From Hypomesus transpacificus (Eukaryota > Chordata > Actinopteri > Osmeriformes > Osmeridae), in contig NC_061061.1 of the NCBI RefSeq assembly GCF_021917145.1, forward strand, positions 13,270,908 through 13,334,907: DNA of 64,000 nucleotides. The letters run 5' to 3'. Below are positions 1 through 37,648 of this stretch, in pieces. Numbering within the stretch: position 1 is the first letter of the stretch; every line of letters starts with the position of its first letter. The position numbers were made by a program, and so were the translations under genes. Below the pieces are notes generated by a model. It was not told where the DNA came from. It saw nothing but the letters and a program-made list of their open reading frames with translations, and made no database searches.

Positions 1-195
1 CATGTGCCAATGTCATTTTAAATATCCAATGCATGTTTTGTTTGAAGATGATTTTAGTTTGAATCAAATGTAGCTTAAAAATTGAATGGTTTAAGAACTA
101 AGATAGTTGTGTGTTTTCTTATATCGGTATGTTGAGGTAATGTTGCTTGTAAACAAACATAAGTCCTTTTCTCCCATAATCCTTCTCTCCTCCAG

Positions 196-605
196 ATCAG
201 AGGGGCTGTGTATTGATTCCCGAGGTATTGATGGTGGGAGAAGAGGAGGTTGGCTGGCCTGAGGCACTGACATACTGCTATAAACGGGGCATGGTACAGA
301 TCAGCTTCAGCACTAATGACTTCCTGCAACATGTGACCGAGGAGGTGGAGAAACAGAAAGCTGTGGGGAACATGAAGAAGGAGGTGTGGATAGGCCTGCG
401 CCGCAGCTCCCTGACTGGGGGGTGGTACTGGTACAATCAGGCTGCCTTGGATGTCACTCGCTGGGCCGCCAATGAGCCAGGGCACCCAACGGAGGGCCAG
501 TGTGCTGCCATGAAGCTGGATGACTACAGCTGGAGTGACCAGAGCTGCTGTAAACCCCTCCCGGCTCTTTGCTACAGAAAGCCGTTCTACTTCCCTCTGA
601 CCTAG
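196..605 (+). CDS. C-type lectin-like domain protein, 3'-terminal exon (5' part outside window)
   Basis: This is the last coding exon of a C-type-lectin-like gene. It follows a pyrimidine-rich acceptor ending at 195 and reads open to a TAG at 603-605. The translation has the C-type lectin fold landmarks: a Cys in LTYCYKRG, the core WIGL motif, a Trp-rich stretch (GGWYWYNQ), NEPGHP near the ligand loop, and the closing cysteines in EGQCAAM, QSCCKP and ALCYRK. The usual EPN or QPD sugar-binding triplet is not present in standard form (NEP is seen), so calcium-dependent sugar binding is doubtful. The exon ends only a few residues after the domain, so this would be the C-terminal domain of the protein. 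Upstream exons, signal peptide and any transmembrane segment lie left of the window. It could belong to a single- or multi-domain lectin receptor; I cannot name the gene. Confidence 0.8.
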
Positions 606-1091: not shown

Positions 1092-2385
1092 TCAGCCAGC
1101 AGTATCTAAGCCCCCCAGCAACATCCAGGTCCCCGTCCCCAAGAGCAGGAGGAGCTTTGCCCCCAGGGAGACTGAGAGCAGCAGCAGCAGCGGGGGGCCC
1201 TGCCCAGCAGGCGGGGGCCTGGGAGACAGCACGTACAGGGTGGCCTGCTCTTTCCCCAGGGGATTGGACGCACTGCAGGTGTACTGCTGCCCAGGGTGGA
1301 CATCCAGCAGCTGGCTGGTGGTGTGGTGCTCTTCAGGAGCGTCCTGGGACAGCGGAGAAAGGGAGGCCTCCTCCAGGAGCTCATCCTGGCTAAGCCACTG
1401 GATATCAGGGAGTGGGGATCCCTGGACACGACACAGAGCCTTGTAGCCAGAGTCCTCGCTGCCCTCCACAGACAGGCCCAAGATACGTGGGGCCGCTGGC
1501 CACAAGCACCACACATAAGAAAGTCACTAGAGAGGCAGATTGGCCAAAAACAAACATGATAGTACACCTTCAGAATTAATATTGTCCTCCCACCACAAGT
1601 GAGTCTTCCCCCCTAGGACACCCCCCCCCCCTGCTACTTCCCCTCAACTTCTCACCTTCCACTCGGAGCCTGGTGCCCATTTTGTCCTCGTAGCTGGCAT
1701 GGGCGTGGCCGGGCACCTCTACACAGCAGTAGTAGCGGCCAATGTCCTGCAGGGCGGCATTGGTGATGCGCAGGGAGAGGTCATGCTGGCGGGGGATCCC
1801 CTCCAGGCGGTAACGCTGGTCCTGCTTAGGACCTGGCTGGCAGCTGCTGGTGCTGCTGGGGCTAGAGCACTGGAACAGGACCCTGGAGCCCTGGCCGTGG
1901 CCCAGACGCCACAGCACCTTCAGGGAGGAGTGCAGCGTGTGGTGAGGATGGGTGAAGGAGCAGGGCAACACGACGGGGTAGCCCTCCATGGCCCTCACTT
2001 CAGGAGGAACCTTCATGGACCAGCCCTCGTCATTGGAGCCCCACACTAGAGGGGGAGGGGACAAGAGCAACAGCTGACGCAGCTCTGAAGGTTGGAGAAG
2101 CTGTAAAGTTACTGCCACTAATAGCCTGGCTGTGAAGACACTGTGAGGAGGCGAAGATGGCTGCCACACTGACAAGATCACCCATTAAAATGAAAGGAGC
2201 CAAGGCTTGCGATTAGGCGATTAAAGATCATTGGAAAATAATGAAATTGCTCCTGTGTTTCAGAACCCTGGCTCCTCGTGTGTTCCTTGTGTGTATGTCC
2301 CTTGGTTATAAAGTATGGTTGATAACTTACCTTCAATGACTGAGAGCAGGAGACTCAAAGAGAAAAGCACGGCTTGAATGTCCAT
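1092..2385 (-). CDS. siglec15: Siglec-15: sialic-acid-binding Ig-like lectin 15, DAP12-type receptor
   Basis: Three coding exons: 2385-2331 (signal peptide), 2045-1656 (V-set Ig) and 1495-1092 (C2-type Ig, transmembrane, stop). Phases close to 282 residues; human Siglec-15 has 328. The V-set matches human Siglec-15 closely: WSMKVPPEV, VLPCSFTHPH, FQCSS, HDLSLRI. Human Siglec-15 binds sialylated glycans and signals through DAP12 using a transmembrane lysine. That lysine is present here (SLGAKLLLLLG). Two oddities stand out. The human binding arginine (R143, in FCRVEF) is Cys here (YYCCVEV). The cytoplasmic tail is only a few residues (ending GGLDTAG), whereas human has a longer tail with a tyrosine motif. 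A further tail exon is possible but no donor is evident before the stop. The gene is head to head with the siglec15-like gene at 2889. Confidence 0.9.
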
Positions 2386-2888
2386 AGCCAGACTGTCCTG
2401 TTCAGGATATTGTATATTGTGAGGTGTGTGCGTATGTGTGGGTCCCACTTGACTCACTGTCTCCCAGCCTCCCAGACACAGTGTCACAAGATTTGTCAGT
2501 ATTCCCAGTACACTGCTATAAAGTGTAATTCAGTATCTGAGTACATACTTTCATGTCTAATATAGAGTGCACTACCACATTATTCCTAAAACACATTTGA
2601 ATCTTGTGTACTTGTATATCAGATGAGGACAACATCTGTCCTTGAGAGCTTCCATTTAAAGTGATTAGACCAATCCACCATAAACCAAAGTTACCCTGAC
2701 GTATATCCAAAAACAGAAGTCAAAAGTTTAAAATAATCGACTTTAAACGGGAAGTGGGTGTGAGAGATTTCACAATGTTTCCTGTCAGCAGCTATTTTCC
2801 TGTTTCAATGGTAAGTGCTCATACATGTTCACATCTTGATCAAGGACTCAAAAGGAGACAGTTGTCTGGAACCATCTTCCGTCCAGAG
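2386..2888. promoter_or_regulatory. short divergent intergenic region between siglec15 and siglec15-like
   Basis: About 500 bp separates the two start codons, which point away from each other. Both promoters and 5' untranslated regions must therefore lie here or extend into the neighbouring gene, unless undetected 5' exons exist. No TATA box or specific factor site is convincing. Shared regulation is an inference from the spacing. Confidence 0.45.
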
Positions 2889-5329
2889 ATGGAGTCTGTT
2901 AGACCCCAGATCCTTCTCACCTGGAGGGTCATGTGGACATTGCTACTTCTCTGGGTCATCCCTGGTAGGAACCGATCATCCTGGAGCATTCTTCTATTAG
3001 CATCTCTGGAGTCATTTGAGTCTTTGTAATATACTTGTGTTAGTTTTATGGTGCATTGATTGTGTTTCAGAGCACTCTAGATGTCTCAGCCTTTGTTGTT
3101 CCCTCTAGGCGTACTGTCCCAGGACTGGCACATGACCACAGCCCCTGTGGTGAATGGCACCGTAGGAGAAGATGTGGTACTGCCCTGCACCTTCACACAT
3201 CCACAGCAAAACACATACTCTGGGGTCATCACAGTTCAGTGGCTGTTCAGACAGTCGAAAGCAAAGCCTTTCTTTGAGTGCAAGATGCAAAATGTCACAC
3301 AGAGAAAACCAGATCGCTGCCTGGTCTCTGAATCCTCGCTGCGATTCTTCATTCACGAGGATCCTAGAGAGAGCAAACTTTCCCTCCTGGTTAGAAACCT
3401 GACACTCACAGACAATGGAGACTACTTCTGCAGAGTAGAATTGGAGTATAATAGATGCCAGTCTCCAACACACCTCAACGTCACAGGTGAAGGCATACAT
3501 TGTTTCTATGTCAATATCATTTGAATATAGTCCTCTATATTTTAAGCAGACACATTCTAAAGTATCTTTATAAAATACTGTGGAACAGAACATGTTGGAG
3601 TGTATTTGATTAAATACTAGTTCTAGTCAGGAACTTAAGGAACATAAAGAGCCTGTGTTCCTTCCTCTCCAGCTCCGGTCCAGATTCTCAGCCTCACATG
3701 GGACAGAACAGCCTCTGGCTCAGGGAATGGCAGCCTTTGCTGTATAGCAGAGGGCAACCCCCGGCCTTCCATCACCTGGCTATCCTCTGGCCAGGAGGAG
3801 CCCTCAGGCCAGCAGGATTCCCCTGGAGATTACCAGATCAAAAGCTCAATCCCCTACTCCATCCAACATCAGTACACCTGCAGGGCAGACAACAGGCTGG
3901 CGAGAGCAGAGGCCTCTTTCCCCCCTAAGGCTTCATCCCTCTCTGTAGCGCTTTCTGTCTGCGGTGTGATGCTGGTGCTGCTGCTTGGTGTTGTGGCTGT
4001 GTTTTTGCTAAGGAAGAGGGGTAGGTTGTGTACTGTACATTGAAACAAGATATTAAAACGTAATTCATATCTTTGGGCATCTTTACTCCAGATGCCTTAG
4101 TATGTTATGTCTTTACAGTTACAGTTCTGTCATTGAGGGTTTCTGCTGTCTTTGTTCCCCTTTCCTCCCAAGGAATTCTGAGACTCTGTCCTTCAGACAA
4201 CAGGTGACATGTGTTCTGAAATAACTGTTTGTTTAACTGCATTAATCAGGTAGCATTGAATTAACAAGATTCTCTCCTTGCCCAGGTGTGAAGAGCAAAC
4301 TAAGCCAGGTGTTTAGCCTCACGCTGGTTCAGTGTTGTTTACATTGCCTCACAAAGGCAGTAATAGTGAGTTATGATTCTCCTTGTTTTCCAACGTCTGA
4401 ATTAATAGAAAATAATAACATGGTGAAACTGCTTGTCAACAGGTCAGTCTTGTGAGTGCCCTATATATGCCAACAGCACAGACTTAGGTGAGTATTATCA
4501 GAGTGCAAATCATACAGTGACAATCAGGGGGGGTCGACTTCTTCTCCAGGCCGTGTATCGACCCCCCCCGACCTGTTGTTTTTACTTCTCTTGGGGGGTC
4601 CAAGTCTTAATTAGGGGGGTCAAACCCCCCCAAGCCCACCGGTAATTTGAACCCTGACTATTATACAGTTTCATCATGGCTAACGATCATGTCATTGTTT
4701 TCATTCTGTTGCTATTTTCCAAAACCCAGAGAAGAGACCAGAGCGGAATGACCTGACGGAAATAGGAGCTGATGAAATGGAATTGGTTTACTCAGTCATT
4801 CACATCCCAGGTCCACGTGAGTTTTACTCTTCAGTGTGTTTTACAATTCAAATATTGAATTAGCCCAGAGTTTCAGTATTGTACTGAACAACACCAGTAC
4901 CCTCTTGCAAGTAAACATAGTCACGTAGCTCTATGTTCTTATAGCTCTCCAGGGGTTACCTCACGTCTCCACAGCAGACGAGGGTGAGTAGCAACAACAG
5001 ACAGAGTGTACCAACCGACTGACTTCACCAACAGAGTGACTGTACCAACAGACTGACTTCACCAACAGATAGACTTTACTGTACCAACAGACTGACTGTA
5101 CCAACAGACTGAGTTCACCAACAGACTGACTGTACCAACAGACTGACTTCACCAACAGACTGATTGTACCAACAGACTGACTGTACCAACAGACTGACTG
5201 CACCAACAGACTGACTTCACCAACAGACTGAATGTACCAACAGACTGACTGCACCAACAGACTGACTGTACCAACAGATTTTGCCTTTGCTGCTCAGGTG
5301 TCAACTACGCTTCAGTGACTTTCTCCTAA
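2889..5329 (+). CDS. siglec15l: Siglec-15-like inhibitory receptor with ITIM-type cytoplasmic tail
   Basis: Exons by hand: 2889-2964 (signal peptide), 3109-3486 (V-set), 3673-4020 (C2-type Ig plus transmembrane), then small tail exons 4173-4203, 4286-4308, 4443-4487, 4730-4816 and 5298-5329. A possible 9-nt exon at 4975-4983 also keeps frame, so the tail has two readings (about 339-342 residues). The V-set resembles Siglec-15 (VVLPCTFTHP) and keeps the sialic-acid arginine in DYFCRVEL. The membrane segment (ALSVCGVMLVLLLG region) has no charged residue and is followed by RKRG. Tail tyrosines are IYANS, LVYSVI (ITIM fit) and VNYASV just before the stop (ITIM fit). Such motifs normally recruit SHP phosphatases, so an inhibitory role is inferred. 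The Ig exons are secure; the exact tail exon borders are less so. The symbol follows fish usage as I recall it. Confidence 0.8.
4499..4658 (-). repeat. short interspersed repeat, copy A (inverted relative to copy at 17993)
   Basis: The segment starts about 11 bp after the 4443-4487 exon of siglec15l. Its reverse complement matches 17993-18185 almost throughout, including CCCCCCTAATTAAGACTTGG, GGGTCGATAC, GGAGAAGAAGT and GATTGTCACTGTAT. Copy B carries about 40 extra bases between GTCGATAC and GGAGAAG. No terminal inverted repeat, target duplication or polymerase III box was recognised, so the class is unknown. Confidence 0.75.
5010..5280. repeat. 17-bp minisatellite in last intron of siglec15l
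   Basis: About 15-16 tandem copies of the unit ACCAACAGACTGACTGT, alternating with versions ending in TTC or TGC. One longer unit (about 22 bp) occurs near 5061. The last copy runs directly into the pyrimidine tract of the final splice acceptor (AG at 5296-5297). Confidence 0.95.
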
Positions 5330-7517: not shown

Positions 7518-9370
7518 ATGTCTCACACTATTGTAACTACCACTACTACAACAACATCGACTTCTGATGGAGGTTTTTTTAACATGGGCTACACCCGTTC
7601 CACACACGGTTTACTGAAGATCGCTCAAATGGTGAGATCAGATTATATCGTTCCCCACAGCCTGCAATAGCCTTCTAAAGCCAATAAACTTTTGTTAAAT
7701 TAAAAGCCGTTTCTGATCCTAATATTCTATGACGATGTGGATGTATGGTCTTAAACAACGCTGTTTCAAAATGTGTTTGCGAGTCTTGAGACGACTTTTC
7801 ATAAGCCTACGCTTCTTTTCACACATATTCAAATTATATATATATATATATTTAAAAAAAAAATCTAAACTCATAGCTTTTATGTTGGAAATTGGGTGTT
7901 AAAACTCGCTATTAATGATGGTGACGTTTAGCTTTACTTCCTATTCAAACTCCTCCTAGTAGATCTGTCATGAAACCCGGTCATACTACAGTATGCACAC
8001 CAGCCCAACTCGGCTGCACACTGGCATCAACCTCTGCAGTTTCAGGAAATACTAATAACCAATTTACTGAATAACAAATAACTCATGTCCTGTTGAGGGT
8101 TATTTCCTCCCGGAAATGAGTCTCTGCAGGTTGGGATGTCTGCAGATGTTTTTGTTATTATTCACTTAAAATATTAATGACAAATAATTTTACGTCCCAG
8201 ATGGAACTAAAAAAAAAACCCATCAGGATAAGAAGTAAACCTGTATGTGTGTTTCCAGGTGGCACTCCTGATAGCGTTTCTGTGCGTGCATCTAGCCCGG
8301 GGATGGACAGATTGGTCAGCCTTCCGCTACTTTGAGGTGGTGACCCTGTGGTTCCTCATCGCCTTCCTCATCTTTTACCTCACGTACCTGCTCCGCTTGC
8401 AGAGCAAGATCCCCTGTATCAACTGGACTCTGACAGTGAGCGACAATGCACACATTTCAATCTCTTTCTTGCAATTTGCATGACTTTTTTGTTTTTTTTC
8501 TCTCTTGAATTTACAAACCACCTATGGCCATTCATTACACCCCCCCCTCCCTCCACACACACACACGCACACACACACACACACACACAAGTGGGTAATG
8601 TGAACCCAAATATAGTTTTGTGTTCTAGGAGTTCTTCCACTACGCCGTGGGGACCATCCTGGTTGGCATAGCCTCCATCGTAGCAGCTGTAAAGAGTAGC
8701 GGAGTGTCTGAACTGGTGGCCGGGTCCGTGAGTGACCTCACTGATGACCACTCGGATTACTTCACTGTTACTGTTCTATGGTTTTAATACTTGGCTCCAG
8801 AGTTTGAGAATAAGTAGAAATGTGATCATTTTGATCTAATGTTAATGTGAGGCTTCAACTACCAAGCAGTCAGGAGTTAAAAGACATTTGTGTTGATGAG
8901 GATCTCTTTATTTATTGTAACACGTCTATTGATATTCCTAAGTGTATCTTTTAAGAATAGCTTCATTTCATAGAAATGCTTCACATACCTACTTTATATA
9001 ATAGTAGTGTGATTTAAATTTGGAAAGGATTCAACCTGAACTGACTCCAAGCCTGTTGTGTACTCTGTCAGGTGTTTGGCTTCATAGCCACGTTCCTGCT
9101 AGCTGTCAGTCTTTGGACTACATACAAGGTGTCCTGTGGCTCCCAGCCAACCAGTAAGTCAAATGATTATTACTAGTTTTCAGGCACTGGTTGCTTAGTG
9201 ACATGACTGACTCGTACGAAAAATATTTGATTACAGCACTTCAAATCATGACATTGTTCGTCTACGTCGTGGGGGGTTTATTATGTAACAGCTGTACTCA
9301 GCTCTCCATCCTCCCCCCTCTCTTAATTGTTCTATCTTTCTCTGTGTCTGTTGTAGGTGCATCTGTTTAA
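7518..9370 (+). CDS. cmtm7: CKLF-like MARVEL transmembrane protein 7
   Basis: Five exons: 7518-7631, 8259-8435, 8629-8727, 9072-9153 and 9357-9370. They splice in phase to 161 residues (human CMTM7, 175). The protein has a short Ser/Thr-rich N-terminus with a run of seven threonines, then the four-helix MARVEL domain. Matching landmarks to human CMTM7 are THGLLKIAQM, LLIAFLCV, YFEVVTLW, IASIVAAVKS, LVAGS, FGFIATFL, YKVSC and the C-terminal SASV. CMTM7 is a vesicle and plasma-membrane protein; in mammals it acts in B-cell receptor signalling and EGFR trafficking. Exons 2 and 3 are 177 and 99 nt, identical in length to those of cmtm6. The N-terminus is the least conserved part; the start at 7518 is the only ATG that gives a plausible short leader. 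Confidence 0.92.
8553..8589. repeat. (CA)n microsatellite in cmtm7 intron 2
   Basis: CA dinucleotide run with one CG interruption, ending about 40 bp before exon 3 and following a C-rich run. Confidence 0.9.

Positions 9371-19476: not shown

Positions 19477-37648
<18,172 letters not shown>

What the first reader, a model, noticed from the sequence alone, without database searches (positions are those of the whole stretch)
1092..5329. Head-to-head paired siglec receptors with opposite signalling parts
Two Siglec-15-type genes are divergent with start codons about 500 bp apart. The - gene has a transmembrane lysine (DAP12-type) and almost no tail. The + gene has an uncharged membrane segment and a tail with two ITIM-fitting tyrosines (LVYSVI, VNYASV). 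This is the layout of an activating/inhibitory paired receptor, best known for other Ig and lectin families. Mammalian SIGLEC15 is, to my knowledge, a single gene.
Basis: partly seen in the sequence, partly recalled or inferred. Interest (0 to 1): 0.72.

Follow-up and report, generated by a model that had tools for sequence, protein, structure and literature searches.

The report
Divergent fish Siglec-15 gene pair
In what looks like a fish genome, two Siglec-15-type immune receptor genes sit back to back, one built like an activating receptor that appears to have lost its sialic-acid-binding arginine and one built like an inhibitory receptor that kept it; they look like an old, diverged pair rather than a ligand-matched one.

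Summary
Two intact gene models lie head to head with start codons 503 bp apart: - strand (1092-2385, 282 aa) and + strand (2889-5329, 321 or 324 aa). Both are Siglec-15-type: human Siglec-15 is the best solved-structure hit of each (E 4.7e-49, 1.4e-25), and their V-sets group with human Siglec-15 against 12 other siglec V-sets (support 100/99) and share its extra cysteines, seen in 0 of those 12. The - gene has the DAP12-type membrane lysine and a stub tail. The + gene has an uncharged membrane segment and two ITIM-type tyrosines.

The V-sets are only 32% identical, so this is not a classical paired receptor with matched ligand domains.

Best reading: a diverged Siglec-15 pair with opposite signalling modules and probably different ligands. 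Expression, signalling and binding are untested. Zebrafish papers already use the name siglec15l; its orthology to the + gene was not tested.

The parts
2331..2385 (-). siglec15 (- gene) exon 1, signal peptide, start codon at 2385
   Evidence: model; donor AAG|gtaagt matches 9 of 9 consensus positions
1656..2045 (-). siglec15 exon 2, V-set domain; codon 1725-1723 (TGT, Cys126) at the R143 position
   Evidence: 43% identity to human Siglec-15 V-set; Pfam V-set 1.3e-11; for the codon
1092..1495 (-). siglec15 exon 3, C2-set domain, membrane segment with Lys262 (codon 1157-1155), stub tail, stop
   Evidence: its acceptor is unremarkable
2386..2888 (.). 503-bp region between the two start codons, possible shared promoter
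   Evidence: coordinates; motif scans gave chance-level results, so promoter function is inferred only
2889..2964 (+). siglec15-like (+ gene) exon 1, signal peptide
   Evidence: weak donor
3109..3486 (+). siglec15-like exon 2, V-set domain; Arg134 (codon 3432-3434) at the R143 position
   Evidence: 40% identity to human Siglec-15 V-set; Pfam V-set 3e-13
3673..4020 (+). siglec15-like exon 3, C2-set domain and uncharged membrane segment
   Evidence: weak donor
4443..4487 (+). siglec15-like tail exon (CPIYANS tyrosine, not ITIM-fitting)
   Evidence: donor strong, acceptor average
4730..4816 (+). siglec15-like tail exon with LVYSVI (Tyr303 codon 4789-4791)
   Evidence: donor strong, acceptor average
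4975..4983 (+). optional 9-nt exon (adds 3 residues net)
   Evidence: consensus splice sites and frame only
5298..5329 (+). siglec15-like last coding exon with VNYASV (Tyr318 codon 5306-5308) and stop
   Evidence: good acceptor

Best explanation
Two intact paralogous Siglec-15-type receptor genes arranged head to head. The - gene is the SIGLEC15 counterpart: a V-C2 receptor that should pair through its membrane lysine with DAP12/DAP10 and signal through Syk (inferred from human Siglec-15). In this genome its sialic-acid site lacks the essential arginine, so it probably no longer binds sialic acid in the usual way and may work on a protein ligand or weakly. The + gene is a siglec15-like paralogue that keeps the arginine, has no membrane charge for an adaptor, and carries two ITIM-type tyrosines expected to recruit SHP-1/2 once phosphorylated. 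The pair can therefore send opposite signals, but the two genes are diverged and probably do not see the same ligand. Shown: gene models, family membership, residues. Inferred: surface expression, adaptor and phosphatase binding, ligands, shared regulation, age of the duplication.
For: Gene models. Human Siglec-15 (7zoz_A) is the top solved-structure hit of both (E 4.7e-49; E 1.4e-25, single-domain score 93 bits over V, C2 and membrane segment; best other siglec Siglec-5, 36 bits). Tree of 15 V-sets: minus, plus and human Siglec-15 versus 12 others, support 100/99; C95, C104 and C142 are Cys in all three and in 0 of 12 others. C95-C104 is called a unique feature in the human Siglec-15 structure paper (PMC10264397 passages). 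Column of R143: Cys in -, Arg in +, Arg in 11 of 12 others; the twelfth (L027) shows Met with Arg next to it, possibly an alignment shift. R143A abolishes sialic-acid binding of human Siglec-15. Membrane lysine aligned. Two ITIM-type sites, 0.5% of shuffles. Whole-genome searches with both proteins and with human Siglec-15 gave no further Siglec-15-type copy: all other matches read as TIM-like, MAG or another siglec V-set.
Against: No transcript, protein or binding data. The order of minus, plus and human is unresolved: one search puts plus with minus (56/19) and does not reject the alternatives (AU p 0.41, 0.30); one search puts minus with human (73/75) and does not reject the others (p 0.26, 0.24). 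Adding a TIM-like V-set (L014) draws it inside the Siglec-15 group beside + (81/85, 91/86; a Siglec-15-only clade is not rejected, p 0.25), so the V-set alone does not fix the place of +. In one search many other Ig proteins also pass on summed domains (next DSCAM, E 5.1e-16). The R143 codon TGT is one transition from CGT, so an allele or assembly error cannot be excluded. Human Siglec-15 itself carries SNYENL in its tail, so activating versus inhibitory is not clean even in the known gene. A DAP12 search of this genome found nothing, which the tool says shows nothing. Several splice sites are unremarkable.
Confidence: 0.62

Rival explanations
1. A true paired receptor: both ectodomains still bind the same ligand and the two proteins are co-expressed on the same myeloid cells to balance activation and inhibition, as Siglec-5/-14 do.
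For: Adjacency, 503-bp divergent arrangement and opposite modules; same family.
Against: V-set identity only 32% (36); Arg lost in -, Y154/E155 lost and loop shortened in + (52). Classical siglec pairs have highly homologous ectodomains (PMC6288428 passages).
Confidence: 0.15
2. The - gene is a receptor in decline: R143C marks relaxed selection, and only the + gene is a working sialic-acid sensor in this species.
For: R to C at the essential position; the same kind of change made human Siglec-XII non-binding (R122C, PMC6288428 passages); stub tail; Y87 also changed.
Against: Full open frame with GT-AG introns, conserved lysine, cysteines and Y154/E155, which relaxed selection would be expected to erode.
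Confidence: 0.15
3. The + gene is not Siglec-15 but another V-C2 ITIM receptor that resembles it by convergence or through a TIM-like V-set.
For: A TIM-like V-set joins + in the enlarged trees; + is the longest Siglec-15 branch (1.64).
Against: + scores 163 against human Siglec-15 and 94 against the TIM-like V-set; shared V-C2-membrane layout, CTFTHP motif identical to human, membrane segment in the same exon as the C2 domain in both genes, adjacency.
Confidence: 0.08

Closest known systems
SIGLEC15 (human Siglec-15, PDB 7zoz)
   Same: V-C2 layout, C95-C104 pair, CTFTHP-type motif, membrane lysine (in the - gene), Arg143 (in the + gene)
   Different: The one human protein has lysine, Arg143 and a tail with SNYENL together; here these features are split over two genes
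Zebrafish siglec15l
   Same: Named as a Siglec-15-like gene; marker of dendritic-like or macrophage cells in zebrafish brain (passages of PMC12698085, PMC8501082)
   Different: Sequence not available here, so orthology to the + gene is a guess
Siglec-5/-14 and Siglec-11/-16 paired receptors
   Same: Opposite signalling modules: SHP-type tail versus DAP12-type membrane charge
   Different: Those have highly homologous ectodomains and are CD33-related (recalled); this pair is head to head, Siglec-15-type and 32% identical in the V-set
Human Siglec-XII (R122C)
   Same: Same Arg-to-Cys loss at the essential position (67)
   Different: A different siglec branch and not a membrane-lysine receptor (recalled)

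Membership tests
Siglec family | N-terminal V-set with PC(S/T)F-type motif (recalled as a siglec hallmark) and tree position with a known siglec | tested here: met
   Both genes; tree of 15 V-sets and alignment
Siglec family (+ gene) | Essential F-strand arginine | tested here: met
   Arg134
Siglec family (- gene) | Essential F-strand arginine | tested here: not met
   Cys126, codon TGT at 1725-1723. Filed with Siglec-15 by descent, not as a sialic-acid binder
Siglec-15 | Extra C95-C104 cysteine pair, and C142 | tested here: met
   Present in both genes and human; 0 of 12 other siglec V-sets; feature described in passages of PMC10264397
Siglec-15 | One V-set plus one C2-set only | tested here: met
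   Models and Pfam (V-set plus one further Ig domain)
Siglec-15 (- gene) | Membrane lysine for DAP10/12 | tested here: met
   Lys262 aligned to the human membrane lysine; adaptor binding itself untested
Siglec-15 (+ gene) | Membrane lysine for DAP10/12 | tested here: not met
   Segment uncharged; so + is filed as a Siglec-15-like paralogue, not as Siglec-15
Paired activating/inhibitory siglecs | Opposite signalling modules | tested here: met
   At sequence level only
Paired activating/inhibitory siglecs | Highly homologous ectodomains | tested here: not met
   V 36/113 = 32%, C2 31/83 = 37% identical
Paired activating/inhibitory siglecs | Shared ligand and co-expression | not testable with these tools
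   No expression or binding data

The most novel reading that the evidence does not exclude
Division of labour after an old Siglec-15 duplication. The ancestor, like human Siglec-15 today, had both a DAP12-type membrane lysine and a tail tyrosine motif (human SNYENL) plus a full sialic-acid site. In this lineage one copy kept the lysine and dropped tail and Arg, while the other kept Arg and an elaborated ITIM tail and dropped the lysine. Activating and inhibitory signalling, and sialic-acid sensing, are thereby split between two divergently transcribed genes, which would make the dual nature of mammalian Siglec-15 testable in separate genes.
Probability: 0.2. Interest if true: 0.6.

Novelty: new variant of a known kind. 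Interest (0 to 1): 0.43.

Why it matters
Siglec-15 is an osteoclast and tumour-immunity target usually described as an activating-type siglec without a typical ITIM. A fish with a separate ITIM-bearing Siglec-15-like gene next to the lysine-bearing one would show that this lineage also has an inhibitory arm. It would also offer a natural experiment on which part of Siglec-15 function needs sialic acid. If the pair is old, it bears on whether tetrapods lost the second gene.

Tried and rejected
Rejected: classical ligand-matched paired receptor (ectodomains too different, Arg lost in one). Rejected: + gene simply another siglec such as MAG or CD33 (tree). Other genome hits of the two proteins and of human Siglec-15 were each read by eye: C1:3580124 is a TIM-like V-set, C2:13479219 is MAG, C2:13354973 is the siglec V-set of L025, and the two C20 hits are TIM-like V-sets. 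Extra exons between 4020 and 4443: the 31- and 22-nt candidates are not multiples of three, alone or together (lengths, whose translations were spoiled by wrong exon ends and mended); of 27 in-frame candidates listed I saw none with both a good acceptor and a good donor, by eye and unscored. Promoter motif scans of the 503-bp gap gave chance-level results. DAP12 search of the genome was empty and uninformative. Structure prediction of the + V-set could not be run.

Rows dropped: of the 11 V-set matches, ten had loci; L021 (near copy of L020) and the one without a locus were left out of the tree, leaving nine own-genome rows. Sialoadhesin and CD33 rows are the partial V-sets printed.

Absence in print: searches listed no paper on a fish Siglec-15 pair. 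Those lists are capped (4 of 4, 20 of 52, 20 of 34, 20 of 734, 10 of 3,349 and 4 of 4 shown), hold open-licence papers only, and most listed papers were not opened. Angata 2007, the founding Siglec-15 paper, was seen only as cited; a 2018 siglec evolution review was looked up and is not held.
Full report
Observation. The window lies at C2:13270908-13334907 of a 437-Mb genome. No tool named the species; that it is a teleost fish is my inference from gene content. Splice-aware models give a - strand gene (exons 2331-2385, 1656-2045, 1092-1495; 282 aa) and a + strand gene (exons 2889-2964, 3109-3486, 3673-4020, 4443-4487, 4730-4816, optional 4975-4983, 5298-5329; 321 or 324 aa), all introns GT-AG and phase 1. 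In both models the V-set is one exon, and the C2 domain and membrane segment share the next exon. Start codons are 503 bp apart.

How sure are the tail exons? The three internal tail-exon donors match 8 of 9 consensus positions (0.7% of 7,991 GT sites in the window do as well). The acceptors at 4443 and 4730 are average (24% of 8,761 AG sites score as well), the donors at 2964 and 4020 are weak (16%), and the - gene's second acceptor is unremarkable (40%). The frame stays open through every tail exon. The 60-residue tail has two sites fitting [ILVS]xYxx[ILV], LVYSVI and VNYASV; 0.5% of 200,000 shuffles have two or more and 13% have one or more. A short-tailed form through read-through at 4020 is possible.

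Family. In the solved-structure search the best hit of both proteins is human Siglec-15, 7zoz_A: E 4.7e-49 for the - protein and 1.4e-25 for the + protein, the latter aligned across V, C2 and membrane segment; for + the next hits are multi-Ig proteins such as DSCAM (5.1e-16 on summed domains). Pairwise identity in the V-set: - versus human 55/127 (43%), + versus human 48/119 (40%), + versus - 36/113 (32%). In the C2 domain: 28/87 (32%), 26/80 (32%) and 31/83 (37%), so there + and - are slightly more alike by identity, though the alignment score is highest for - versus human (121 against 81). In a tree of 15 V-sets (nine other siglec V-sets of this genome, mouse MAG, mouse sialoadhesin, human CD33, human Siglec-15 and the two genes) the three Siglec-15 types form one side of a branch with support 100/99. 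The order among the three is not resolved: joins + and - (56/19), joins - and human (73/75), and no alternative is rejected (p 0.24 to 0.41). The age of the duplication is therefore open. The low + versus - identity agrees with an old split, but fast evolution would look the same. One result cuts against: a TIM-like V-set (L014) added to the tree falls beside + (81/85, 91/86), although a Siglec-15-only clade is not rejected (p 0.25). Raw scores favour Siglec-15 (163 against 94).

Diagnostic residues. Human C95, C104 and C142 are Cys in both fish genes and in 0 of the 12 other siglec V-sets; C95-C104 is called a unique feature in the crystal-structure paper (passages of PMC10264397). W44 is kept in both. 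R143, whose mutation abolishes sialic-acid binding (same passages), is Arg in +, Cys in -, and Arg in 11 of 12 others; the twelfth, L027, shows Met in that column with Arg next to it, which may be an alignment shift. Y154 and E155 are kept in - and absent in +, whose loop there is shorter; Y87 is kept in neither. So each gene has lost a different part of the binding site. The - codon is TGT (1725-1723), one transition from an Arg codon, so it should be checked in reads before much is built on it. Bornhofft 2020 reports R143 and the membrane lysine as conserved from fish to mammals, and cites that the zebrafish orthologue did not bind the tested glycans strongly (PMC7226832 section 17).

Signalling parts. 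The - gene's Lys262 lies where human Siglec-15 has its DAP12-binding lysine (Lys274 in passages of PMC6941304). Thirteen residues follow the hydrophobic core. The + segment is uncharged. From established knowledge of these families, the - protein should need DAP12/DAP10 and the + protein should recruit SHP-1/2. Neither was shown. A DAP12 search of this genome was empty and uninformative, but dap12 and siglec15 rise together in medaka osteoclast-type cells (passages of PMC7657398), so the adaptor exists in fish.

Is it a paired receptor? By the definition in PMC6288428 (passages), highly homologous ectodomains recognising similar ligands plus opposite signals, only the second half is met, and that at sequence level. 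The pair works like an activating/inhibitory set in its signalling parts, but it is not a member of the classical kind. The Arg-to-Cys loss recalls human Siglec-XII R122C (same passages).

Known or new? Zebrafish siglec15l is a named gene and a marker of dendritic-like or macrophage cells in brain (passages of PMC12698085 and PMC8501082); I could not test whether it is the + gene. [quoted passage not shown] In this genome one - type and one + type copy were found and no further Siglec-15-type copy; the search scores only the best candidates. Six searches listed no paper on a fish Siglec-15 pair, with the limits stated under Tried and rejected.

An extra thought. Human Siglec-15 carries both the membrane lysine and a tail SNYENL that fits the loose ITIM signature [I/V/L/S]xYxx[L/V] given in PMC7226832, although a review says it lacks a typical ITIM-like motif (PMC11652361 section 5). 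If that was the ancestral state, the fish pair would be a split of one dual receptor into two genes. This is an idea, not a result.

Verdict. Real and correctly observed; ordinary in kind (an Ig receptor paralogue pair) but unusual in being Siglec-15-type, divergent, and apparently split in both signalling and binding residues.

Noticed in passing
G000:C2:13272000-13479600 (L030, L025, L026, L019): The pair sits about 72 to 203 kb from other siglec V-sets on the same chromosome: two near-identical tandem copies at 13.348 and 13.355 Mb (CD22-like by my reading), another siglec V-set at 13.447 Mb and MAG at 13.479 Mb. In human, SIGLEC15 (18q12.3) is apart from the CD33-related siglecs on 19q13 (MAG and CD22 on 19q13 recalled), so the fish linkage may reflect an older siglec cluster.
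   Followed up: partly
window 4991-5278: Minisatellite of 16.6 copies of a 17-bp unit in the last intron of the + gene, ending 19 bp before the exon that carries VNYASV.
   Followed up: no
L014 (G000:C1:3580124-3580453); L035, L036 on C20: TIM-like V-sets are the next matches after siglecs, one of them draws close to Siglec-15 in V-set trees, and TIM structures appear among the hits: the Siglec-15 V-set may be unusually TIM-like.
   Followed up: partly
L027 (G000:C2:3244422-3244772): A siglec-like V-set whose essential-Arg column shows Met with Arg one position on; either a shifted arginine or an alignment error.
   Followed up: partly
window 180-605: C-type lectin domain exon (Pfam Lectin_C 8.7e-13) just beside the siglec pair.
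   Followed up: no
window 8262-8435, 22710-23096 and 36889-37143: Neighbouring + strand exons: a MARVEL-type exon, CMTM-like by eye (E 5.9e-4, below the Pfam cut-off), a C2 domain (1.7e-7) and a Copine domain (6.2e-36), the last two probably one copine gene.
   Followed up: no
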